Below, piece after piece: positions 553 to 10,744 of a stretch of DNA of 10,744 bases (positions are counted from its first letter, which is position 1; each line of letters starts with the position of its first letter). The translations under genes were made by a program, and so were the position numbers. Source of the stretch: an uncultured Bacteriovorax sp. (GTDB lineage Bacteria; Bdellovibrionota; Bacteriovoracia; Bacteriovoracales; Bacteriovoracaceae); the NCBI GenBank assembly GCA_946482295.1, contig CAMLRB010000128.1, forward strand, positions 1-10,744, written 5' to 3'. The notes beneath the pieces are model-generated. The model searched no databases. It was not told the origin of the DNA and saw only the letters and a list, made by a program, of their open reading frames with translations.

Positions 553-2250
553 ATGAAAAAGATGCTATTAGGGCTTGCGACAGTGGCAGTGACAACATCA
601 CTACACGCTACTGTGGCCGAACACGTTCCAGGCGAAATCGTCGTGAAGTTCAAGGAAGGTCGTGCAAACGCTTTCTTAAACAACAAGAATTTCTCAACGT
701 TAGGGATCGCAGGTAAGAGAGATGTTAATCTTTCTTATGGAACTCTCTCTGTATTGAAAGTCGCTCAAAACAAATCGGTTGAGTCAGTACTTAAGTCACT
801 TCAATCAAACAGCGATATTGAATTTGCTGAACCGAACTTCATTTATCGTGTAAACCCAATTAAAGAAAAAAACTTTTCACATAAGAGACTACAGAAGTCT
901 CCATTCACTGATTTCACGGCTGCGATTCCAAACGATCCATCATTTGGTCAACTTTGGGGTCTTCGCAATACAGGATCTAATGAGCCTCAAGGGAAAGCAG
1001 GTGTAGAAGGTGCAGACGTTAATGCTCTTAAAGCTTGGGATCTTACAACAGGTTCTAAAAGTGTAAGGATTGCAGTTATTGATACAGGTGTTGATTACAA
1101 TCACCCAGATTTAAAAGAAAACATCTGGACAAACGAAGCTGAAAAAAATGGTAGGCCAGGTGTAGACGATGATAAAAACGGATACGTAGATGATATTCAT
1201 GGATATGACTTCGCTAACAGCGATTCAGATCCAATGGATGGAAACGCTCACGGAACTCACTGTTCAGGTACAATCGGGGCCATTCATAACAATCAAGTTG
1301 GTGTTGCTGGGGTAATGAGTGACGTTCAAATTGTTGCTGTTAAATTTTTAGGTGATGATGGTTCAGGTTCACTAGAAGCGGCCGTTAAAGCGATCGATTA
1401 TGCTACGACATTAAACGTTGATCTTATGTCAAACTCTTGGGGAGGCGGTGGACGCTCTCAAGCTCTTTTGGATGCTATTCAAAGAGCTTCAGACAAAGGA
1501 ATCATCTTTACAGCTGCAGCTGGCAACAGCTCTTCTAATAACGATGCTTCACCTTCTTACCCAGCAAGCTACGAAACAGCAAACATGGTTGCTGTTGCAG
1601 CGACGACAGCTCAAAACGGATTAGCTTCTTTTTCTTCTTATGGAAGAAACTCAGTTCATATTGGAGCTCCAGGGCACAATATTCTTTCAACAGTATCTGG
1701 TGGGGGATATGATGTGTACTCTGGAACATCAATGGCAACTCCACACGTTTCGGGTGTCTTAGGACTTCTACTTGCTAAGGAAGGAAGACTTCCTCATGCA
1801 GAAATGAGAGAGCGCTTAACAATGACTGGTGTACCTGTTGCTGGACTTCGTGGGAAAACACAAACGGCTTCTCGCATCGATGCATACAATCTTCTTACAG
1901 ATACTCGTCCAGAGCGTTCTGGACCAAAGAATGATGCGTGGAAATCACTTGAACTTTCAGAGCGTCTAGAATCAGCTCACCCATACGCTGACAATGCAAT
2001 GTCTTCAAAAACTATTACAATTCCAGGTGCAAAATACCTAAGAGTAAAAGTAGCGAAGTATGACCTTGAATCTGGTTATGACTATCTTCGTATTGCTGAT
2101 GCTCAAGGAAACACAATTGAAAAAGTTTCTGGCACAGGGGAAAACTACAAGACAGACTACATCGAAGGGAACACTGTAAAAATCGATTTCGTTTCAGACA
2201 GATCGATCAATAAGTGGGGATACCTCATCGAAGAAATTGAAGTACAATAA
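553..2250 (+). CDS. Exported subtilisin-family (S8) serine protease with propeptide and C-terminal beta domain
   Basis: This is a secreted endopeptidase precursor of 565 residues. Residues 1-19/22 form a Sec signal peptide (MKK, hydrophobic core, then LHA or TVA). Residues ~25-100 resemble an inhibitor/chaperone propeptide (VPGEIVVKFK to EFAEPNFIYR). The catalytic domain spans ~130-455. Its triad is Asp177 (VIDTGVD), His233 (HGTH) and Ser393 (GTSMATPH), with oxyanion Asn325 (AAAGNSS). An Asp-rich loop at ~204-217 (DDDKNGYVDD) is typical of calcium-binding insertions in this family. The last ~90 residues (~475-565) form a separate beta-rich segment resembling a CUB or P-like domain, perhaps for substrate or surface binding. 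The start is fixed by a strong GGAGG ribosome-binding site. The gene appears monocistronic, ending at a hairpin terminator. The only cysteine is Cys237. All key residues are intact, so it is likely active. The natural substrate is unknown. Confidence 0.95.
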   Translation: MKKMLLGLATVAVTTSLHATVAEHVPGEIVVKFKEGRANAFLNNKNFSTLGIAGKRDVNLSYGTLSVLKVAQNKSVESVLKSLQSNSDIEFAEPNFIYRVNPIKEKNFSHKRLQKSPFTDFTAAIPNDPSFGQLWGLRNTGSNEPQGKAGVEGADVNALKAWDLTTGSKSVRIAVIDTGVDYNHPDLKENIWTNEAEKNGRPGVDDDKNGYVDDIHGYDFANSDSDPMDGNAHGTHCSGTIGAIHNNQVGVAGVMSDVQIVAVKFLGDDGSGSLEAAVKAIDYATTLNVDLMSNSWGGGGRSQALLDAIQRASDKGIIFTAAAGNSSSNNDASPSYPASYETANMVAVAATTAQNGLASFSSYGRNSVHIGAPGHNILSTVSGGGYDVYSGTSMATPHVSGVLGLLLAKEGRLPHAEMRERLTMTGVPVAGLRGKTQTASRIDAYNLLTDTRPERSGPKNDAWKSLELSERLESAHPYADNAMSSKTITIPGAKYLRVKVAKYDLESGYDYLRIADAQGNTIEKVSGTGENYKTDYIEGNTVKIDFVSDRSINKWGYLIEEIEVQ

Positions 2251-2331: not shown

Positions 2332-3684
2332 CTATTTCTTAATACCAAAAATCAATTTAAATTGTGTATTTGCTGAATCCGTTTGATAGAGGAGATCTCC
2401 TCCATGTTCTTTCATAATTTTCTTCGAAATTGATAATCCTAGGCCAGTACCCTGAGATGAATTTTTTGTTGAATAAAAAGGCTCAAAGATATGGGGCCGG
2501 GATTCCACAGGAATCCCGTCACCACTATCGGTAACAGTCACAACAACATTTTCATCGGTGCTAAAGGCTTCGATTTTAATCCAAGGATCTGTAGATGCCT
2601 CGATGGCATCTAGTGAGTTATTCACCAGATTAGTGAGGACTTGTATGATTTGAATCTTCCTCACTTCAATGATTGCACTATTTGTGTGGTCTTCAATTGT
2701 TAGCCGGATTTTTCCATCACTCAGCTTTTGAGCAACCAATTCATTAACTTCTTCTAAAATTGATTTGAGATCATGATACTCAAAAGGATCATTATCACCA
2801 CTCTTCGAAAGAGTTTTGAAGTTTTTAATAATACTTTGTATGCGTTTTGAATTTCTTTTGATGACTTCTAAATTTTTGAAAAGTTTTTCTTTATCAAAAT
2901 CTTGGCCCTTTAAATCATTACTGACAATTCTCAAGCGACCATCAATGACCATTAAAGGAGAGTTGATTTCGTGCGCCAGTTCAGCACTCATCATTCCTAA
3001 TGTTGACAACCTAGTCTGTAAAACAAGCTGCTCATGTTGTTGATTAATTTTTTTGTTCAATCTATATCTTAAGATTGTAAAATAAATGAGTCCAAATTGA
3101 ATGATGATGAAAAGGGCAATGAGTCCATAAAAGATTTGGGAGTTCTTTTCTTTTAATTCAGCAAAGCGAGCAAATTTGAAAGACTCTTCAATCCATAAAC
3201 CACTTTCTACCTGAAAAAGAACATCTATGAGATTATCAAGTTTACCAATGATCGTGGTGATCAATTCTTTTTCTGCTAGTGGATTTTGACTTTCAGAGAG
3301 TTTAATAAAGAGAGGATTAATTTCTGTAAAATAGGGATCAAAGCGATTAGAAGTTTTACTCTTATTCTGAAATTGCTCAGACATTAAGATTTTAAAATTC
3401 GAATGGGCCGCAAGGAGCTGATCTTCTGCTTCCCAAATCAAGTCTATGTTTTTATCATTGAGGGCCCGAAGGAGATAGTATCGAGTATGATTTAACCCAT
3501 TGATCGATTTGAGAGTGAGGCGAGAATGAAAATTTGTACGGTAAGTATTGTTTTGAATGTCAGCGTTGTGAGTGACGTTTTCATTTCCTAAGATAATAAA
3601 GGAAACAAAAATGATGATCATGACAAGATTAAGTAATACACCACTTAGTATTGTATGTTGATTAATCTTGTTTTTGTTTGTCAT
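2332..3684 (-). CDS. Membrane sensor histidine kinase with periplasmic domain, no adjacent regulator
   Basis: This is an inner-membrane two-component sensor kinase of 450 residues. TM1 is at ~13-33 and TM2 at ~184-204. They bound a mostly helical periplasmic sensor of ~150 residues with no recognised cofactor motif. The dimerisation/phosphoacceptor segment follows, with His238 in AHEINSPL. The ATPase domain has the N box (NLVNNSLDA, Asn356), G1 (DSGDG, Asp386), F box (IFEPFYSTK, 399-407) and G2 (GTGLGLS, 412-418). All catalytic motifs are intact. There is no receiver or HAMP-like segment that I can identify; a short linker (205-225) joins TM2 to the His domain. It starts 3 bases after the pterin-binding-like gene stops, with no strong ribosome-binding site of its own, so translation is probably coupled. 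No response regulator gene is adjacent, so the output partner is unknown. The neighbour suggests that it senses the periplasmic protein, which is inference. Confidence 0.93.
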   Translation of the reverse strand: MTNKNKINQHTILSGVLLNLVMIIIFVSFIILGNENVTHNADIQNNTYRTNFHSRLTLKSINGLNHTRYYLLRALNDKNIDLIWEAEDQLLAAHSNFKILMSEQFQNKSKTSNRFDPYFTEINPLFIKLSESQNPLAEKELITTIIGKLDNLIDVLFQVESGLWIEESFKFARFAELKEKNSQIFYGLIALFIIIQFGLIYFTILRYRLNKKINQQHEQLVLQTRLSTLGMMSAELAHEINSPLMVIDGRLRIVSNDLKGQDFDKEKLFKNLEVIKRNSKRIQSIIKNFKTLSKSGDNDPFEYHDLKSILEEVNELVAQKLSDGKIRLTIEDHTNSAIIEVRKIQIIQVLTNLVNNSLDAIEASTDPWIKIEAFSTDENVVVTVTDSGDGIPVESRPHIFEPFYSTKNSSQGTGLGLSISKKIMKEHGGDLLYQTDSANTQFKLIFGIKK

Positions 3685-3687
3685 TTG

Positions 3688-4176
3688 TTAAATGAACTCA
3701 ATAGATTTAACTTTCCAAACCCAATTCACACCTAATGTGAGTAGAAGGTCTTTAGAGAGAATTCCTTCAAAAGGTGCGATTATTCTCGCAGGTCCCATAC
3801 GCTCTACACTTAAATAACCATTTTCATCTTTATAACTTAAAAACAACTTGGCCTTTGAAACGTCAGTATTGCTGATATCAATTTGGTATCCGTCTATGGC
3901 CTTGACTTTAATTTTGGTAGTTCCCGTTTGGGCGAATTTTTTAACAAGTTCTTCGAGGTAGAAACCATCAAATGTTGTTTTAATATTTTTATTATAGGGA
4001 TCGTGGATTGTGATTTTTTGAACCTTCGTAAACTTCTCTAGTTCAACAACAGTGAAGCTTAAAGGCGATTTGCCGTTCATTTTTCCAAGGAGTGTAACTT
4101 TTTGACGGGGGATGGGAGAGGCGAAAAGTGATGTAGTGATGATTAATGATAAAAGCGCTGTGATAAAGTTTCGCAT
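3688..4176 (-). CDS. Periplasmic SUOX-fold pterin-binding-like protein (PruR-like), cysteine-free
   Basis: A 162-residue exported protein. Residues 1-19 form a signal peptide ending SLFA before SP. The mature part has signatures of the molybdopterin-oxidoreductase (sulfite oxidase) fold: a TTFDGFYLEELV segment (68-79), a RMGPARIIAP motif (126-135) and the C-terminal NWVWKVKSIEF (151-161). It has no cysteine at all, so the Mo-ligating cysteine of true sulfite oxidases is missing. It is also about the size of the stand-alone domain. Known relatives of this cut-down type (such as PruR of Agrobacterium) bind pterins in the periplasm and control a partner membrane signalling protein. Here the partner would be the histidine kinase 3 bases downstream. 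The start at 4176 is chosen over an upstream ATG at 4209 because AAGGA precedes it at good spacing, a signal peptide begins there, and the longer frame would translate through the rpmB terminator. Ligand and role are inferred. Confidence 0.82.
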   Translation of the reverse strand: MRNFITALLSLIITTSLFASPIPRQKVTLLGKMNGKSPLSFTVVELEKFTKVQKITIHDPYNKNIKTTFDGFYLEELVKKFAQTGTTKIKVKAIDGYQIDISNTDVSKAKLFLSYKDENGYLSVERMGPARIIAPFEGILSKDLLLTLGVNWVWKVKSIEFI

Positions 4177-4190
4177 CGTTTTCCTTTTGT

Positions 4191-4221
4191 ATAAAAAAAA
4201 AGCTCCCACGAAGGGAGCTTT
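4191..4221 (-). terminator. Intrinsic terminator of rpmB
   Basis: Reading leftward, AAAGCTCCC (4221-4213) pairs with GGGAGCTTT (4207-4199) around a 5-base loop. At least six T residues follow, with a further A/T-rich tail. It begins 26 bases after the rpmB stop. The same sequence lies just before the ribosome-binding site of the downstream periplasmic protein gene. Confidence 0.9.
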
Positions 4222-4606: not shown

Positions 4607-5074
4607 TCATTGACACCATCCAGCAATCACGATCCTCTCCCCCGATGTGACGGCCGTTACCCGGTGTTCGTACCCGTAAATACCAGTTAAGAAGAGTAAA
4701 ATTGTTCCAAAAGGACGAGTGGAGATACTTTCTGCGGATGTTTCCCCTTTTTTACGAAATTGCAGATGGCCACCTTCAACGCTCAAAGAATCAAGCGTAA
4801 GAGAAAGCGAAAAACCGAGTATCCGAGACCCATCGTCGTGCCAAATGCCATCTTCGTCATCCGGAGCGCTTCGAATGGCGATAATATGTTCGAGGCCTTG
4901 ATAATCAAGGTAATCCTTCAGAAACTTTCTTAAAAGACCCTGTGGTGCACTCATTTCTTTAAAAGCATCGTCGAGTGCTTTCCAGTTTCTCTCTTCAACA
5001 AGCGGGAGAATATTTTCAGGAAGGGGAAATGTCGTTTGAATAAGACCCGTCGGAAATTCATGATAGAGCGACAT
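4607..5074 (-). CDS. Small 2-oxoglutarate/Fe(II)-dependent oxygenase
   Basis: A 155-residue protein of the prolyl-4-hydroxylase-like 2OG-Fe(II) oxygenase superfamily, which couples O2 and 2-oxoglutarate to substrate hydroxylation or related oxidation. The iron facial triad is visible as His79 and Asp81 (WHDDG) and His137 (GYEHRVTAV). Arg147 (SGERIVIAGW) is positioned to bind 2-oxoglutarate. GGHLQFRKKG (101-110) is the usual strand between them. No signal peptide is present, so it is cytoplasmic. The start at 5074 has GGAGG six bases upstream; ATG at 5077 is too close to it, and the longer frame from 5122 lies wholly inside the preceding gene. It overlaps the radical-SAM gene by 17 bases and is the last gene of the long operon. 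The substrate is unknown. The neighbours suggest it acts after, or together with, the radical-SAM enzyme. Confidence 0.85.
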   Translation of the reverse strand: MSLYHEFPTGLIQTTFPLPENILPLVEERNWKALDDAFKEMSAPQGLLRKFLKDYLDYQGLEHIIAIRSAPDDEDGIWHDDGSRILGFSLSLTLDSLSVEGGHLQFRKKGETSAESISTRPFGTILLFLTGIYGYEHRVTAVTSGERIVIAGWCQ

Positions 5075-6089
5075 CATCGTCCTCCATACATTCATAAATT
5101 TTTTCAAGCGCAACGCCAGCATCTACTAAAAGACTTTTAACTTTGCCGAGAATCCACATGCGCGTGGGGCGATTATAGCGAATTTTATTATCAAAACTTT
5201 TAATAAAATCATCCGCGAGAAAATCTGTGTCCGGATAATTTTTCATGACTTGATGATAAACGTTCTTCGTAAATCGAACAACACCAATGGAGATGTATTC
5301 AATCTGATCGGGAGGGAGGACAAGAGTGAGATCATGAATAAGTTGGGTGTAGCTCTCTTCGATTTTATGATCGTAGATGATGGGATCGAAGTGGAGCCCG
5401 ATCGGATGACCTTGTTCGTGAAGTTCGCTGATGGCCTGCAGTCGTGCTTTCGTTGAAGGTGTTTTTAAATCGTTAATACGTGCACGGTGTTCTGGGGCCA
5501 ATGAAAAACTTGTGATCACATTAGCTGAAGGGCGCTCTTTTAAAATCTCTTTGATATTCACTGATTTTGTTCTCAGCTCTAGTCGAGCATTGGGTAGTCT
5601 ACGAAAGAGATCAAAGTAAAAAGGCAACTCACCAGTGAGATGAGAAAGAGCGAGTGAGTCACTATATTCTCCGGCATGAAACCAAATCAGCTGGCCGGGA
5701 TTCGTTTGGGCAAAATCATTCGCCATCTTTTCGATTTCCGCACCGATTTCTTCATGATTAAGAAAAAGAACGATATCGGGAGATTGAAAATAGCCTTGAA
5801 GGTAACAATAATTACATTCGTAAATACAGTTGTAGGCATGCACGAAATAATAATGGGGATCACCGGAGAGTCCATAAGCTGGAGGGGCCGGTTTCACCAA
5901 CTGACCTTTTTTCTCTCCGAGAAACAAGTTGAGATTGGTGCGTTTTTGCAGATATGGTTTTTTTACTCGTCCAAAAACATCTTCAATTTTTGTCAGCAGT
6001 TTCACTTCCGCTTGAGGAAAACGAGCAATGATCGCCTTAGCTCGCGGATGATCGACTAAATGTTTCTCCAAGAAAATTTTCTCGAACAT
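5058..6089 (-). CDS. Radical SAM protein of the spore photoproduct lyase family, catalytic Cys absent
   Basis: A 343-residue radical SAM enzyme. Cys88, Cys92 and Cys95 form the CxxxCxxC [4Fe-4S] site in YNCIYECNYCYLQ. Tyr94 and Tyr96 match the paired tyrosines that relay the radical in true spore photoproduct lyase (SPL). Further family-like segments are HAGEYSDSLALSHLTG (138-153), LRTKS (172-176) and the C-terminal YNRPTRMWILGK (305-316). The only other cysteine is Cys334, so the hydrogen-donating cysteine of Bacillus SPL (Cys141, in a C-x-S-D motif) is missing; GEYSD has Glu141 where it would be expected. Nothing in the window suggests sporulation. It may repair a different DNA lesion or modify another substrate. 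The start ATG overlaps the nucleosidase stop (TAATG), with AAGGGAAG upstream. The gene is tightly linked to the nucleosidase and the oxygenase. Confidence 0.88.
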   Translation of the reverse strand: MFEKIFLEKHLVDHPRAKAIIARFPQAEVKLLTKIEDVFGRVKKPYLQKRTNLNLFLGEKKGQLVKPAPPAYGLSGDPHYYFVHAYNCIYECNYCYLQGYFQSPDIVLFLNHEEIGAEIEKMANDFAQTNPGQLIWFHAGEYSDSLALSHLTGELPFYFDLFRRLPNARLELRTKSVNIKEILKERPSANVITSFSLAPEHRARINDLKTPSTKARLQAISELHEQGHPIGLHFDPIIYDHKIEESYTQLIHDLTLVLPPDQIEYISIGVVRFTKNVYHQVMKNYPDTDFLADDFIKSFDNKIRYNRPTRMWILGKVKSLLVDAGVALEKIYECMEDDDVALS

Positions 6090-7129
6090 TAGCTAATCTT
6101 CCCTTCAAAAATATCTTTGATCTTTTGAAAGTTAAACTGGTCGAGCGCAAGCTGTAATCGTTTTTGATCTTTAGATGATTTAATTTTGGTATTGAGAGTG
6201 ACGTGGGGATTTTCTAGTTCTGGATCATAATGGGCCGTGATGCCCGCATTTGTCAGAGGCAAAAGGGCCATTTCAAGCTGTTCTTTTATTTTATACTTAA
6301 GCGGATTAAGTTTGAGATCGAGCTCAGAAAGCAGAAGTCTCGAAAGGTCTTTGGCATTTTTATCTGGATATTCGGACAGGATGCTTGAGCACAAGTAATC
6401 GAGATCTTTTTTGGTTATCAGTTCTTTAATGCGCAAACCATCGAGCAGTTGCTGCAACTTTCTCTCTTGGGTAACAGTGAAGTGAAAACGATCATCTGAG
6501 ACAGTTAAGGTATGTGTAGGAGGCGTGACCGCCACGTTTTTTTTCGATGGTTCCTTTTCCAAAAAGTGGTGCAACATTTTTTTTGAAAGGGCGTTAGCGT
6601 CCATTTTTATAAATGTACACATGTCCACATCAGTGACTTCATCAGAAATAAGTTTGAGTGAACGAAACTCTTTTTTAAAAAGGGCCGCGGCCGAAGCTAT
6701 CGACCAAGCTTCACGGTCGACCATATCGGCAAAAGGTGAGAGTTCTTTTTTTTGTTCAAGGTTTGTTGCCCTTGAAAAACTCGTAAGACAATCGATTCCA
6801 TCATGAACTGAAGAGGTATAGGTTTTAAATTCACATTTTTCCGAATTGTGAGCGAGAACTGTGCGAATCCAGGCATGATCGCCAACTTTTAATTTTGGAG
6901 TGAGTGATCCAGCAATCCCAATGTTTATCACTTGAGAAATTTGGGAAGCGAAAGCTGAAAGCACGGACACTGTTTTTTCACTGGCGTTTTGTGGGCCCTC
7001 TCCACACAGGAGGAGATAATCATTTTCATTTTGATAGACACCATCAAAATGAAAAGTGATGGGAAGAAAGGAAAAGTGCTCGATAAAAGCTTGAGCTTCT
7101 CCACGATGAGCGAATACGAATAGTTTCAT
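6089..7129 (-). CDS. MTAN-like nucleosidase fused to an unassigned C-terminal domain
   Basis: A 346-residue protein. Residues 1-~195 fit the nucleoside phosphorylase/nucleosidase family, resembling 5'-methylthioadenosine/S-adenosylhomocysteine nucleosidase (MTAN). Glu11 is near the N-terminus (FAHRGEAQAF), NIGIAGSL (69-76) forms the ribose/anion loop, DREAW carries Glu140 at the substrate-binding position, and ISDE (161-164) carries the catalytic Asp163. Such enzymes cleave adenine from nucleosides, including the 5'-deoxyadenosine by-product of radical SAM reactions. That fits the radical-SAM gene overlapping its end by one base. Residues ~200-346 are an additional region, mostly helical with a possible short beta pair (HYDPELENPHVTLNTKI, 300-316), which I do not recognise. 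MTANs are usually ~230 residues, so this is a substantial extension. The start follows directly on the permease stop, with GAGGT upstream (7142-7138). Nucleosidase class is fairly secure; substrate is inferred. Confidence 0.8.
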   Translation of the reverse strand: MKLFVFAHRGEAQAFIEHFSFLPITFHFDGVYQNENDYLLLCGEGPQNASEKTVSVLSAFASQISQVINIGIAGSLTPKLKVGDHAWIRTVLAHNSEKCEFKTYTSSVHDGIDCLTSFSRATNLEQKKELSPFADMVDREAWSIASAAALFKKEFRSLKLISDEVTDVDMCTFIKMDANALSKKMLHHFLEKEPSKKNVAVTPPTHTLTVSDDRFHFTVTQERKLQQLLDGLRIKELITKKDLDYLCSSILSEYPDKNAKDLSRLLLSELDLKLNPLKYKIKEQLEMALLPLTNAGITAHYDPELENPHVTLNTKIKSSKDQKRLQLALDQFNFQKIKDIFEGKIS

Positions 7130-8338
7130 TTATTCATACCTCAAAGCATCTATCGTTTGAATCATCGCTGCTTTTCTTGCTGGCCAGACACCAAAGCCCA
7201 ATCCAGTAATAAATGAAAGAAGGAAGGCCGGAGGAATAATCCAGAACGGCGGACGCATATCAAAACCAGGAAAGAAAAAATAAAGTGCTTGAGCAATGAT
7301 TTCTGAAATAAGAATTCCGATCACACCACCAGAGACGGAAATGACAACGGCTTCGATGATAAACTGTTTCAGAATATCACTTCTTCGTGCGCCAACGGCC
7401 CTTCTAATACCAATCTCACGTGTCCTCTCTGTTACTGAGACGAGCATGATGTTCATGATCCCAATACCACCAACGAGCATTGAAATAAAAGCAATAGCTC
7501 CCAGAGCATAAGTGAGCATGCTGAGGATGGTGTTCATGCTTTCGAGCATGTTAACTTGAGTAACAATCGTAAAGTTCTCTTCACCGTTATCGCGCTCTTT
7601 TAAAATGTCAGTAATGTCTTTTACAGCATCATCTAGACCGTTACGTGTTTTTGAAGCAGCACGGATACCAAAGAGGCGATCTGTATTAAAGAGGCGCAAT
7701 GCTGATTTTGTAGGAATGAAAACCATATCATCAACGTTGAAACCAAGTTTATCTCCAGTTGGTTTGATGATTCCGATGACTCTGTGTTCAGAGTCGTTTA
7801 CTTTTACGAGTTTTCCCAATGCCAGATTATCACCGAAAAGATTTTTCTTAACATTGAAGCCGAGAACAACAACGCGTCTTCCGGCATCGTCATCTTCTTT
7901 CGTGATGTAATTTCCTTGAATGATGACCATGTTGAAAATTTTCATGAACTGGTCGTTCGATCCGAGAATATTGATGTTATTGCTAGCACCTTCAAACTTA
8001 ACCACACCGGCCCCATACATCACGCCTGAAACGGCAGAAAGTGAAGTGGCATATCGTTGAAGAGCTTCCACGTCACTCATCAAAAGTTTTCCTTTCGACG
8101 AAGCTACAGGAGGACCCATGGATGATTTTTTATCTGTTTTACCCGGCTGGATAATAATGATGTTTGTTCCTAAACTTTCAAACTCACTTGTGATGTAACG
8201 TTTGGCCCCTGTTCCGACAGAAACAAGCAAGATCACCGCACTTACCCCGATGATCATTCCGAGCATCGTGAGAGTGGAGCGAAGTTTGTTTTCTATGAGT
8301 GCTTCAAATGAATTGACGATGATTTTTTGCATGATCAT
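7130..8338 (-). CDS. MacB-type ABC transporter permease
   Basis: A 402-residue inner-membrane permease of the MacB/FtsX type-VII ABC family, lacking a fused ATPase. TM1 lies at ~22-43. A large periplasmic core of ~220 residues (45-265) follows (ITSEFESLGTNIIIIQPG and onward). Three C-terminal TM segments are at ~275-300, ~327-357 and ~365-388. The conserved cytoplasmic loop ERTREIGIRRAVGARRSDI (304-322) contacts the ATPase, and the protein ends with the family-typical PARKAAMIQTIDALRYE. In known MacAB systems this protein works by mechanotransmission, driving periplasmic substrates through the adaptor and TolC. The start overlaps the ATPase stop as ATGA. GAGGA lies ~9-10 bases upstream of the ATG at 8338; a second ATG at 8332 is possible. 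Transported substrate unknown. Confidence 0.94.
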   Translation of the reverse strand: MIMQKIIVNSFEALIENKLRSTLTMLGMIIGVSAVILLVSVGTGAKRYITSEFESLGTNIIIIQPGKTDKKSSMGPPVASSKGKLLMSDVEALQRYATSLSAVSGVMYGAGVVKFEGASNNINILGSNDQFMKIFNMVIIQGNYITKEDDDAGRRVVVLGFNVKKNLFGDNLALGKLVKVNDSEHRVIGIIKPTGDKLGFNVDDMVFIPTKSALRLFNTDRLFGIRAASKTRNGLDDAVKDITDILKERDNGEENFTIVTQVNMLESMNTILSMLTYALGAIAFISMLVGGIGIMNIMLVSVTERTREIGIRRAVGARRSDILKQFIIEAVVISVSGGVIGILISEIIAQALYFFFPGFDMRPPFWIIPPAFLLSFITGLGFGVWPARKAAMIQTIDALRYE

Positions 8339-9030
8339 AAGGATTTTTCCTCGCGGATATGACCATCACTCATTCTTAAAATTCGATTGCAGCGAGAAGC
8401 GACGTGGTTGTCATGTGTAACAATAATGACGGTTACACCTTGCCGGTTGAGTTCAGCAAAGAGGTTCAAAATTTCTTCTGACGTTTTTGAATCAAGTGCT
8501 CCGGTTGGTTCATCGGCCAGTAAAATTTTAGGACGATTGACGAGAGCTCGAGCAATCGCAACACGTTGACGTTGTCCCCCCGAGAGTTCATTTGGCAAGT
8601 GATTAACGCGGGAACTTAAGCCGACTTGATCAAGAGTTTTAAGCGCCATCTCCCGGATCTTTTGATCCGTGAGGTTTTTATCGTAGGCAGAGGCATACTG
8701 CATCGGCATTTCAACATTTTTGAGAGCGGACGCTTTTGGGAGCAAGTTGAAGCTTTGAAAAACGAAACCGATTTTTTGGTTTCGATAGTGAGAAAGCTGA
8801 TCATCATTCATTTTAGAGATGTCAGTTCCATCTAGTAAATATTGTCCACTGGTTGGAAGGTCTAAGAGACCAATGATGTTCATTAAAGTAGATTTACCTG
8901 AACCAGATGTTCCGACGATTGAAGTAAATTCTCCTTCATGAATTTTGATTGTTACACCATTGAGCGCCTGAATTCTTTCTTCGCCCATCATGAAGTCTTT
9001 ATGAATATTATGAAGATCGATTAAGGCCAT
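8335..9030 (-). CDS. MacB/LolD-type ABC transporter ATPase
   Basis: A 231-residue ATP-binding subunit that powers the permease encoded just downstream. Walker A is GTSGSGKST (40-48), the Q-loop glutamine is Gln92 (FVFQSFNLL), the signature is LSGGQ (149-153), Walker B is ILLADEP with catalytic Glu174, and the H-loop is His206 (VTHD). FVFQSFNLLP and ADEPTGALDSKT are typical of the MacB/LolD/FtsE subfamily. All motifs are intact. The gene overlaps the adaptor gene by 10 bases at its start and the permease by 4 at its end. AAGAGA lies a few bases before the ATG. It could alternatively be labelled LolD, but the adaptor and TolC partners favour a tripartite efflux pump. Confidence 0.95.
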   Translation of the reverse strand: MALIDLHNIHKDFMMGEERIQALNGVTIKIHEGEFTSIVGTSGSGKSTLMNIIGLLDLPTSGQYLLDGTDISKMNDDQLSHYRNQKIGFVFQSFNLLPKASALKNVEMPMQYASAYDKNLTDQKIREMALKTLDQVGLSSRVNHLPNELSGGQRQRVAIARALVNRPKILLADEPTGALDSKTSEEILNLFAELNRQGVTVIIVTHDNHVASRCNRILRMSDGHIREEKSL

Positions 9031-10019
9031 TGTATCTCTTTTGAATCAACTTTCATTCCATCCGTTAATTCTACACCCTCAAGCGGCTGGGCAATAGGAT
9101 CGTTGGCATCAAGTCCACTAAGGATTTCTACACGATCATAATTTCCGGTTCCCACTTTTACGGGTTTTTTTACAAGTTTATTATCTTTAACTACAAACAC
9201 TGAGCGCTCTGAACCAACGCCAGTTAGTGTCGAGGCCGGAAGGATAGTAGCTTGCTCCTTTTTCTCGACGATGATTTCTACATCTGCCGAGGCCCCAACT
9301 GGAATCAAAAGATCATTGTCTAAGATTTCAAGTTCAATTTGGCTTGTGCGGTCCTGATCTTTTACTGTACTCACGAAAGGTACAACTTTAGTAAGACGAG
9401 CATTGATCAATTGATTACGCATGGCCGGGATTTTTACACGTGCGTCTTGTCCAATTTTGACTTTTTGAAGATCGACTTCATCAATTTCACCTTTAATCAA
9501 TCGAGATTTAAGATCGATGATTTGAACGTCGATTTTTTTTGTCGATGTCGTAATGCCAGCACTTGATTGATAAAATTCACCAATCTTCAAGTTGAGGGCC
9601 GTAATCATTCCGTCAAAAGGAGCGACAATCATTGTTTTATTTAAATTCGTACGGGCGACTTCACGAGCACGTTTAGCACTGTCGAGATTCGCACGCGAAA
9701 CGAGTCCACTCTTAAAAAATTCTTCAGCCCTTTCATAATCTTTTTGAGTTTCATCCAGGATGGCCTTTAGGTCAGAATTTTCAAGTTCTGCAATGATCGC
9801 ACCGGCCCTTACTTTGTCTCCTAGAGAAACGTGAATTCGAGAAATTCTTCCTGGAGTGCCAAAAGCAAGTTCTGCCTGTTGTTTGGCCTCGACAGTTCCT
9901 GAATTAGTTGTTGTAACTGTGCTTTCAACTGTTCCTTTAGAGAGTTTAATGGTTTTTACTTCGACCTTAGGCCCACAAGCGGCGATTAAAATCAGAAGGG
10001 GGATGTATTTTAATTTCAT
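9021..10019 (-). CDS. Periplasmic adaptor (membrane fusion) lipoprotein, MacA/HlyD-type
   Basis: A 332-residue adaptor that bridges the MacB-like permease and the outer-membrane channel. The N-terminus MKLKYIPLLILIAAC is a lipoprotein signal with lipobox IAAC; Cys15 would be the lipidated residue, followed by Gly-Pro. The two lipoyl half-motifs are at ~55-80 (GRISRIHVSLGDKVRAG) and ~132-150 (APFDGMITALNLKIGEFY). They flank a short alpha-helical hairpin (~82-128). The beta-barrel and membrane-proximal domains follow (~170-325), with ILPASTLTG and SVFVVKDNKLVKKPVKVG as in HlyD/RND adaptors. Its ATG overlaps the stop of the TolC gene (TAATG), and its end overlaps the ATPase start. The short hairpin is MacA-like in scale, implying contact with a TolC tip rather than a long periplasmic bridge. 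Confidence 0.93.
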   Translation of the reverse strand: MKLKYIPLLILIAACGPKVEVKTIKLSKGTVESTVTTTNSGTVEAKQQAELAFGTPGRISRIHVSLGDKVRAGAIIAELENSDLKAILDETQKDYERAEEFFKSGLVSRANLDSAKRAREVARTNLNKTMIVAPFDGMITALNLKIGEFYQSSAGITTSTKKIDVQIIDLKSRLIKGEIDEVDLQKVKIGQDARVKIPAMRNQLINARLTKVVPFVSTVKDQDRTSQIELEILDNDLLIPVGASADVEIIVEKKEQATILPASTLTGVGSERSVFVVKDNKLVKKPVKVGTGNYDRVEILSGLDANDPIAQPLEGVELTDGMKVDSKEIQWP

Positions 10020-10744
10020 TAGAAGCCTGCCTGCCAGATAGTATTCTGCGATAATGTGTAATATTGAATTTTATTTTGAGCGAGTGAGATCTTCGCATCG
10101 AGAAGATCATCTTGAACTTCAAGAAGTTCAAAGAGGGATCCTTTGCCGAGCTGGTATGATTTGTAAGACAGTCTGTAGAGCTCTTCAAACTGAGACACAT
10201 TCAACGTAAGCGAAGCAACCAACGTCTTAAGTGCATCGATTTTAATAAGAGCATTGTTAAGATTATTTTCCAATTCTTGTTTTTGGCGACCAATAGTCAC
10301 TTCAACTCTTTTACTTGCATAGTATTTTTCAAATTGAGTAGAAGCAAAACTCCCACCTGAAAAAAGAGGGATGTTAAGCACGAGGGCCACTGTGTGGGTC
10401 TTTTGTCCTTGGTGCAACGATTGATCAAACGTTTCGCCTGCACTTGTAAATGATCCTTGAAGTGAAAGATCAGGATACTCAAGGCGCGTAAGTTCTTCGA
10501 GTGCAAGTTTATTGATTTTTTCTTCATGAACCAATTGTTGATACTGAGGACTGCGCTCCAGAACGACTGATTGATTAAGTGACGGTACATTTGTGAGTTC
10601 ATGAATAACTGCTAATGTTTGCTCTTCATTTAGTGGTTTGAAGATTTCAAGGTCAGAAGCAGAAAGTCCACTGTATTCCAGTAGACGACTTTTTGTATTT
10701 TGTTCTTCATCGATATATGTCGTTTTTTTCGAGTTGAGAGAAAC
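10019..10744 (-). CDS. TolC-family outer-membrane efflux protein, C-terminal part
   Basis: The frame is open from the window edge to a TAA at 10019, giving the C-terminal 241 residues. An outer-membrane efflux protein repeat is evident: RSPQYQQLVHEEKINKLALE as the start of a coiled helix, LEYPDLSLQGSF as a beta-strand, VALVLNIPLFSGGS as the second strand with the usual P-L-F-S-G-G turn, a long coiled coil (~140-190), then SYQLGKGSLFELLEVQDDLLDA and the final helix. This is the exit duct of the tripartite pump. A shorter frame beginning at a TTG at 10534 is not a real start, because the homologous sequence continues upstream of it. The operon promoter and N-terminal half lie outside the window. 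Confidence 0.93.
   Translation of the reverse strand, partial: VSLNSKKTTYIDEEQNTKSRLLEYSGLSASDLEIFKPLNEEQTLAVIHELTNVPSLNQSVVLERSPQYQQLVHEEKINKLALEELTRLEYPDLSLQGSFTSAGETFDQSLHQGQKTHTVALVLNIPLFSGGSFASTQFEKYYASKRVEVTIGRQKQELENNLNNALIKIDALKTLVASLTLNVSQFEELYRLSYKSYQLGKGSLFELLEVQDDLLDAKISLAQNKIQYYTLSQNTIWQAGF

What the first reader, a model, noticed from the sequence alone, without database searches (positions are those of the whole stretch)
4607..10744. A tripartite exporter translationally coupled to a nucleosidase, SPL-like radical SAM enzyme and 2OG oxygenase
Seven leftward genes have no intergenic DNA. The junctions are TAATG (TolC/adaptor, 1 base), a 10-base overlap (adaptor/ATPase), ATGA (ATPase/permease), direct stop-start abutment (permease/nucleosidase), TAATG (nucleosidase/radical SAM) and a 17-base overlap (radical SAM/oxygenase). 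Such continuous coupling suggests co-production in one physiological process. A complete MacAB-TolC-like pump plus a radical SAM enzyme, a nucleosidase that could clear its by-product and an oxygenase could make and export, or detoxify and expel, a modified small molecule. It could also be a stress operon combining damage repair and efflux. I do not know this gene set as a described system.
Basis: partly seen in the sequence, partly recalled or inferred. Interest (0 to 1): 0.72.

Follow-up and report, generated by a model that had tools for sequence, protein, structure and literature searches.

The report
Radical enzyme with a swappable partner
In these predatory-type bacteria a radical enzyme related to a DNA-repair lyase was always found encoded beside a nucleosidase that carries an extra tail domain, a tail that in a sister system sits on a DNA-binding-type protein, while the efflux pump next to them is only a local addition.

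Summary
The seven genes and all six junctions are real. But the pump is not part of the conserved unit. In 80 genome loci (76 readable upstream) the nucleosidase (NUC) directly precedes the SPL-like radical SAM gene in 76 of 76. In 240 Bdellovibrionota genomes full-length NUC and this SPL class occur in the same 58 genomes, adjacent in 58 of 58. The pump abuts NUC in 7 of 73 loci (plus the window), inserted between NUC and a divergent aldo/keto reductase that is NUC's direct neighbour in 57 of 73. The oxygenase is associated (46 of 58 genomes) but not fixed in place.

NUC is an MTA/SAH-nucleosidase-like domain with intact catalytic residues plus a ~139-residue C-terminal domain without a clear match in Pfam or PDB. 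In Calditrichota this domain and the radical SAM gene are absent together between the same flanking genes. It is homologous (profile-profile E 2.8e-10; controls at most 1.2% probability) to the C-terminus of ParB-like proteins coupled upstream of a second SPL-like class. I read it as an adaptor.

The SPL cysteine that donates hydrogen and allows SAM recycling is Glu here, so 5'-deoxyadenosine should be released; NUC probably destroys it. Substrate unknown; function inferred, not shown.

The parts
10019..10744 (-). TolC-like outer membrane protein, 5' part cut by the window end (accessory pump)
   Evidence: PF02321, 1.6e-20
9021..10019 (-). periplasmic adaptor, membrane-fusion protein (accessory pump)
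   Evidence: TIGR01730 over cut-off, PF16576
8335..9030 (-). LolD/MacB-type ABC ATPase (accessory pump)
   Evidence: PF00005; below the cut-off in all 25 NCBIfam rows shown
7130..8338 (-). MacB-type permease (accessory pump); orthologues 78-87% identical in relatives
   Evidence: PF12704, PF02687
6089..7129 (-). NUC: nucleosidase with extra C-terminal domain, 346 aa (core)
   Evidence: PF01048; Foldseek to MTA/SAH nucleosidases E 1.4e-12
6515..7129 (-). NUC N-terminal nucleosidase domain; E11, E140, D163 invariant in 76 aligned sequences
6092..6508 (-). NUC C-terminal domain (proposed adaptor), homologous to the C-terminus of ParB-like partners of class-2 SPL-like enzymes
5058..6089 (-). SPL-like radical SAM enzyme, 343 aa (core)
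   Evidence: PF20903 3.5e-22; PDB spore photoproduct lyase E 1.7e-18
5805..5828 (-). CxxxCxxC radical SAM motif (C88, C92, C95)
   Evidence: 79 of 79 sequences, 78 loci and the window
5667..5669 (-). E141, at the place of the SPL hydrogen-donor C140
   Evidence: alignment; Glu in 78 of 79, 1 not matched by the pattern
5088..5090 (-). C334 in the C-terminal CME motif, candidate replacement donor
   Evidence: CME present in 79 of 79 sequences
4607..5074 (-). 2OG-Fe(II) oxygenase, 155 aa from ATG 5074; H79, D81, H137, R147 invariant in 39 sequences (associated, not fixed)
   Evidence: PF13640

Best explanation
The core is a two-protein radical SAM system: NUC and the SPL-like enzyme, encoded by overlapping or abutting genes. 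The C-terminal domain of NUC is an adaptor that docks on the SPL-like enzyme or holds their common substrate. The N-terminal domain is an active nucleosidase that cleaves the 5'-deoxyadenosine released on each turnover to adenine and 5-deoxyribose; the neighbouring aldo/keto reductase may dispose of the sugar. The radical enzyme needs this because the Cys that lets genuine SPL donate hydrogen and recycle SAM is replaced by Glu. The substrate is probably DNA or a nucleotide, since the sister class has a ParB-like partner. The pump was added in front of this unit in one Bacteriovorax clade and is dispensable. Shown: gene structure, linkage, domain homology, residue conservation. Inferred: docking, 5'-deoxyadenosine as substrate, the role of the reductase, the nucleic-acid substrate.
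For: NUC abuts SPL in 76 of 76 readable loci (these loci were found through SPL). Searched separately in 240 Bdellovibrionota genomes, this SPL class and full-length NUC are in the same 58, adjacent in 58 of 58. Of 40 Calditrichota genomes 20 have NUC; the 3 with the C-domain are the only 3 with this SPL class among the 25 searched for it. In 4 of 7 short-NUC loci (L117-L120) NUC without the C-domain is followed directly by the kinase that follows SPL in L024, L044 and L071, with no SPL between. The C-domain matches ParB-like partners of class-2 SPL: prob 96.8%, E 2.8e-10, 122 columns; controls at most 1.2%; enlarged set E 4.3e-11. Class-2 SPL genes have a same-strand upstream gene within 10 nt in 41 of 45 evaluable loci (2 of the 41 are channel-like). 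NUC catalytic residues are invariant. C140 becomes Glu; PMC3742179 (passages) says SPL without this Cys makes one 5'-dA per repair. AKR is NUC's direct divergent neighbour in 57 of 73 loci, also beside short NUC in 4 of 6 loci. No MqnA/D in 12 of 12 genomes, against a futalosine role.
Against: No biochemistry. Other radical SAM enzymes manage without a dedicated nucleosidase (recalled), and most of these genomes hold other PF01048 proteins. C334 could replace C140, so SAM recycling may persist. 9 of 73 loci have neither AKR nor pump beside NUC. The adaptor match is remote (11% identity; 74.5% probability for the 30 partners without ParB-like features). Relatedness of genomes inflates all counts. 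Short NUC exists without any SPL match in 5 of 17 Calditrichota genomes, so the nucleosidase has a life of its own.
Confidence: 0.45

Rival explanations
1. NUC is not a by-product scavenger but the second step of nucleic-acid repair or modification: the SPL-like enzyme alters a base and the NUC domain, held on the same DNA by the adaptor, cleaves the altered nucleoside's N-glycosidic bond.
For: ParB_N in partners of the sister class and their similarity to canonical ParB. SplB-like enzymes described as LexA-regulated (PMC3323433, passage) and in repair operons; a DUF4130 enzyme linked with SplB-like enzymes and uracil DNA glycosylases (PMC3765255, passages). An SPL-family gene is listed among UVC-induced genes in a Curtobacterium (PMC12029717, passage).
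Against: PF01048 enzymes known to me act on free nucleosides, not DNA (recalled). No excess of LexA-type boxes in 73 upstream regions (consensus sequences recalled; the window and pump loci have coding DNA there). NUC without the C-domain keeps its AKR neighbour in 4 of 6 loci where SPL is not adjacent.
Confidence: 0.27
2. A biosynthetic or detoxification cluster: the three enzymes make or modify a small molecule that the MacAB-TolC-like pump exports.
For: One-base PERM/NUC overlap in 7 of 7 pump loci of the clade over wide divergence; an SPL tree on which pump presence needs three changes, compatible with one gain and two losses.
Against: Pump beside NUC in only 7 of 73 loci; an 81% identical permease on another contig of G001, next to an MFS-like gene; none found in G002 and G048, which keep NUC and SPL. 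No biosynthetic gene beyond these was noticed in the window; short precursor-type ORFs were not searched for.
Confidence: 0.1
3. A canonical spore photoproduct lyase with chance neighbours in a slowly rearranging region.
For: PF20903 match, PDB match to SPL; L28 and the S8 protease nearby are also kept in many loci.
Against: Linkage holds in Bdellovibrionota, Calditrichota and L076/G009, in different surroundings; the NUC C-domain tracks SPL; C140 is lost; scores far below the SPL equivalog cut-off.
Confidence: 0.08

Closest known systems
Spore photoproduct lyase (SplB; PF20903, TIGR04070, PDB 4fhc-4fhg)
   Same: Fold family, CxxxCxxC, the Tyr right after the third cluster Cys
   Different: C140 replaced by Glu; CME cysteine near the C-terminus; always found with an upstream partner gene
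MTA/SAH nucleosidase (MTAN/Pfs) and aminodeoxyfutalosine nucleosidase
   Same: N-terminal fold; catalytic E, E and D retained
   Different: Below the equivalog cut-offs; extra C-terminal domain; fixed neighbour of a radical SAM gene
ParB-like partner plus class-2 SPL-like gene (found here; no name met in the libraries and papers searched)
   Same: Partner gene overlapping the start of an SPL-like gene; homologous C-terminal domain
   Different: ParB_N/middle domains instead of nucleosidase; another SPL subfamily
SplB-like radical SAM with DUF4130 / uracil DNA glycosylase or ImuB-C (PMC3765255, passages)
   Same: SPL-like enzyme linked with an N-glycosidic-bond enzyme or DNA-damage module
   Different: Other partner domains than here; no SOS box seen here
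5'-deoxyadenosine disposal (5-deoxyribose salvage, PMC6079011, abstract start only)
   Same: Proposed substrate and logic
   Different: Kinase, isomerase and aldolase there; here an aldo/keto reductase is the neighbour (the salvage genes were not searched for)
MacAB-TolC
   Same: Adaptor, ATPase, permease and outer-membrane protein types
   Different: ATPase and permease are separate genes; accessory to this unit

Membership tests
Spore photoproduct lyase | CxxxCxxC motif | tested here: met
   79 of 79
Spore photoproduct lyase | hydrogen-donor Cys (C140 Gt / C141 Bs) | tested here: not met
   aligned to Glu; Glu in 78 of 79
Spore photoproduct lyase | score over the equivalog cut-off | tested here: not met
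   TIGR04070 86.9 of 400 bits, TIGR03886 103.7 of 437.55
Spore photoproduct lyase | repairs 5-thyminyl-5,6-dihydrothymine | not testable with these tools
   needs an assay
MTA/SAH nucleosidase | PF01048 fold | tested here: met
   Foldseek E 1.4e-12, TMt about 0.7
MTA/SAH nucleosidase | catalytic E12, E174, D197 (E12 and D197 appear in PDB titles; E174 recalled) | tested here: met
   E11 (placed by eye), E140 and D163 (alignment), all invariant in 76
MTA/SAH nucleosidase | score over the equivalog cut-off | tested here: not met
   NF004079 32.2 of 169 bits
Futalosine hydrolase | genome holds MqnA/MqnD (PF02621) | tested here: not met
   0 of 12 related genomes (the window's own genome is not held); control found in 4 of 14
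MacB exporter | MacB periplasmic core plus FtsX domain | tested here: met
   PF12704, PF02687
MacB exporter | ATPase and permease in one chain at equivalog score | tested here: not met
   separate ORFs; NF007826 239.3 and 250.9 of 966 bits
2OG-Fe(II) oxygenase | HxD...H iron ligands and Arg | tested here: met
   invariant in 39 sequences
Shared SPL-partner C-domain | profile homology between NUC C-domain and ParB-like partner C-terminus | tested here: met
   (E 2.8e-10, nine partners grouped by eye; 8 families, reversed and 8 shuffled controls)
Shared SPL-partner C-domain | physical docking on the SPL-like enzyme | not tested
   no complex predicted

The most novel reading that the evidence does not exclude
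SPL-like radical SAM enzymes of these bacteria are two-component machines: an undescribed adaptor domain on the upstream protein recruits the radical enzyme, and the adaptor's other half is swapped between lineages (ParB-like DNA clamp, or nucleosidase). They are DNA- or nucleotide-modifying systems with chemistry different from spore photoproduct lyase.
Probability: 0.4. Interest if true: 0.78.

Novelty: new variant of a known kind. Interest (0 to 1): 0.6.

Why it matters
SPL-like radical SAM genes of such bacteria carry names such as 'spore photoproduct lyase' or 'DNA photolyase' in the sources, although they lack the catalytic cysteine. A dedicated co-encoded partner, with a domain shared between a nucleosidase and a ParB-like protein, gives a concrete handle on what they act on and how by-product is handled, and it can be tested with two purified proteins.

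Tried and rejected

Rows dropped or weak: among the 58 genomes, G193, G196 and G225 have split or fragmented SPL or NUC; the piece next to the other gene was used. From 43 candidate class-2 upstream proteins, L136, L148, L162 and L163 were left out of the profile (39 used); L162/L163 (the two Calditrichota loci) have a channel-like upstream gene, not a partner, yet count among the 41 of 45. Of 47 class-2 genomes listed, 45 were fetched (not G229, G019). The 4 class-2 loci without a coupled gene are L130, L133, L148, L100; L124 and L161 end at contig edges. L105 was dropped from the long-SPL alignment (mis-start). L021 and L071 had no SPL ORF's gene caller and L003, L006, L029, L030 no NUC ORF; tblastn found them. 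L011, L020, L057, L079 end before NUC and are not in the 76.

Literature: ten searches of an open-access library. From the listings, and passages of four papers (PMC3323433, PMC3765255, PMC12029717, PMC3742179), I saw no description of the NUC-SPL pair or of ParB-like partners; subscription papers are not held.
Full report
What is there. Seven leftward genes with overlapping or abutting ends were confirmed: a TolC-like protein cut by the window end, an adaptor, an ABC ATPase, a MacB-type permease, a PF01048 nucleosidase (NUC), a PF20903 SPL-like radical SAM protein (SPL) and a PF13640 2OG oxygenase (OXY), followed by a gene that reads as ribosomal protein L28 (4248-4481; named by eye). The closest genome loci are Bacteriovoracaceae.

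What is conserved. One scan of 84,980 genomes with an SPL alignment gave 107 relatives, of which the best 80 were kept. Of these, 76 reach upstream of SPL; in 76 of 76 NUC lies directly before it on the same strand. In 240 Bdellovibrionota genomes, SPL of this class (384 bits or more) and full-length NUC occur in the same 58 genomes, adjacent on the same strand in 58 of 58, distance -2 to 67 bases by profile ends; three of the 58 have a split or fragmented gene. The pair also occurs in Calditrichota (L024, L037, L044, L071) and in L076, whose genome is the only one of 112 sampled from its phylum with either gene at E 1e-15.

The pump. It abuts NUC in 7 of 73 loci with enough upstream DNA, plus the window. 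In the five of them that also show the flank, it lies between NUC and an aldo/keto reductase (AKR) about 4.3 kb away, which elsewhere is NUC's immediate divergent neighbour (57 of 73). Nine of 73 have neither at that place. On an SPL tree of 21 rows (19 labelled), pump presence needs three changes, compatible with one gain at the base of a supported clade (99/96) and two losses. In the genome of L001 an 81% identical permease sits on another contig beside an MFS-like gene (named by eye); G002 and G048 have only 32% and 34% identical permeases. L003 comes from a bin with three different SPL genes (L003, L010, L020), probably mixed. So the pump is accessory, but where present its coupling is strict: a one-base stop/start overlap in 7 of 7 relatives and abutment in the window.

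The oxygenase. The iron ligands and Arg are invariant in 39 sequences. It lies within 150 bases of SPL in 24 of 73 loci and within 6 kb in 52 of 73. It occurs in 46 of 58 genomes with the pair and 11 of 182 without (relatedness not corrected).

NUC. The first ~205 residues model as an MTA/SAH nucleosidase (pLDDT 92.6; Foldseek E 1.4e-12). Catalytic E11, E140 and D163 are invariant in 76 sequences. It is below every equivalog cut-off shown. Futalosine pathway genes are absent in 12 of 12 related genomes. The remaining ~139 residues fold confidently alone (pLDDT 96.0): seven helices and two strands, no clear PDB match, and no Pfam family besides PF01048 matched by more than 4 of 30 members, at weak E-values.

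The C-domain goes with SPL. In Bdellovibrionota the 190-216 aa NUC of L088-L093 lacks it; there SPL is not adjacent, and the AKR is still the neighbour in 4 of these 6 loci (L089, L090, L092, L093). In Calditrichota, 20 of 40 genomes have NUC; the 3 with the C-domain are the only ones of 25 searched that have this SPL class. In 4 of the 7 short-NUC loci fetched (L117-L120) the gene after NUC is the orthologue (57-68% identical) of the histidine kinase that follows SPL in L024, L044 and L071, with no SPL between; in L117, L118 and L120 the transglutaminase that precedes NUC in L024 is kept too. L116 and L121 are short pieces and L122 has other neighbours. So C-domain and SPL gene are present or absent together between fixed flanks.

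The C-domain is shared. A second SPL-like class (bits 120-199; 45 Bdellovibrionota loci fetched of 47 listed, plus 2 Calditrichota) has a same-strand upstream gene within 10 nt in 41 of 45 evaluable loci (two of these are channel-like genes, see Tried and rejected). Four of the 13 upstream proteins that I scanned carry ParB_N over the cut-off: L094, L126, L127 and L155. I grouped nine proteins as ParB-like by eye (these four, L125, L128, L129, L132, L144; of the last five L125, L132 and L144 gave no Pfam match, L128 and L129 were not scanned). As a profile their N-terminal and middle part match ParB proteins (E 6.4e-14 over 140 columns) and their C-terminal part matches the NUC C-domain: E 2.8e-10, 96.8%, 122 columns. 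All 39 partners: 3.4e-8, 95.1%. The other 30: 2.7e-5, 74.5%. Enlarged ParB-like set of 13: 4.3e-11. The first small set of six gave only 28.6%. Controls: eight other families, reversed partners and eight column shuffles all at most 1.2%; the NUC N-domain against the partners 0.1%. Hence a domain that sits right before an SPL-like gene, behind different N-terminal domains.

Chemistry. In genuine SPL, C140/C141 donates the hydrogen and allows SAM recycling; without it one 5'-dA appears per repair (PMC3742179, passages). Here that position is Glu in 78 of 79 sequences (one not matched by the pattern), while class 2 has Glu in 44 of 47 and the long class Gln in 14 of 15. A CME cysteine (C334) near the C-terminus is present in 79 of 79, 46 of 47 and 15 of 15. 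PMC3742179 names only four conserved cysteines in B. subtilis SPL, three in the cluster motif and C141. So this is not a spore photoproduct lyase by its defining residue, though it may work like one if C334 has taken over. If SAM is not recycled, 5'-dA, reported as an inhibitor of radical SAM enzymes (PMC8102628, abstract start), accumulates, and a docked nucleosidase is the obvious remedy; AKR could act on 5-deoxyribose. These last steps are inference.

Verdict. The new point is an adaptor-type domain that ties SPL-like radical SAM genes to exchangeable partners.

Noticed in passing
L094 4051-6116; L126-L129, L155: ParB_N-containing (or, in L128 and L129, ParB-like by eye) protein overlapping by about 4 bases, or abutting (L155), the start of a class-2 SPL-like radical SAM gene
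   Followed up: partly
L081-L087, L104, L106-L111: Long (413-438 aa) SPL-like proteins with an N-terminal TxQE-L-R...D-MW-type motif; weak, not significant resemblance to the helical half of the NUC C-domain
   Followed up: partly
L012 7947-8948; L001 7904-8854: Aldo/keto reductase divergently transcribed from NUC; a family-2 glycosyltransferase lies within 8 kb in 34 of 66 loci
   Followed up: partly
L162, L163: Calditrichota class-2 SPL-like genes preceded by an ion-channel-like gene (by eye) instead of a ParB-like partner
   Followed up: no
window 553-2250: Subtilase with prodomain and a CUB-like C-terminus just under the Pfam cut-off, divergent; kept near the L28 gene in many loci
   Followed up: no
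window 3688-4209 and 2332-3684: Protein with a sub-threshold molybdopterin-oxidoreductase match next to a histidine kinase, also kept in L001, L002 and L101
   Followed up: no
L003, L010, L020: Three different SPL genes in one metagenome bin (LF-bin-6), so the bin is probably mixed
   Followed up: no
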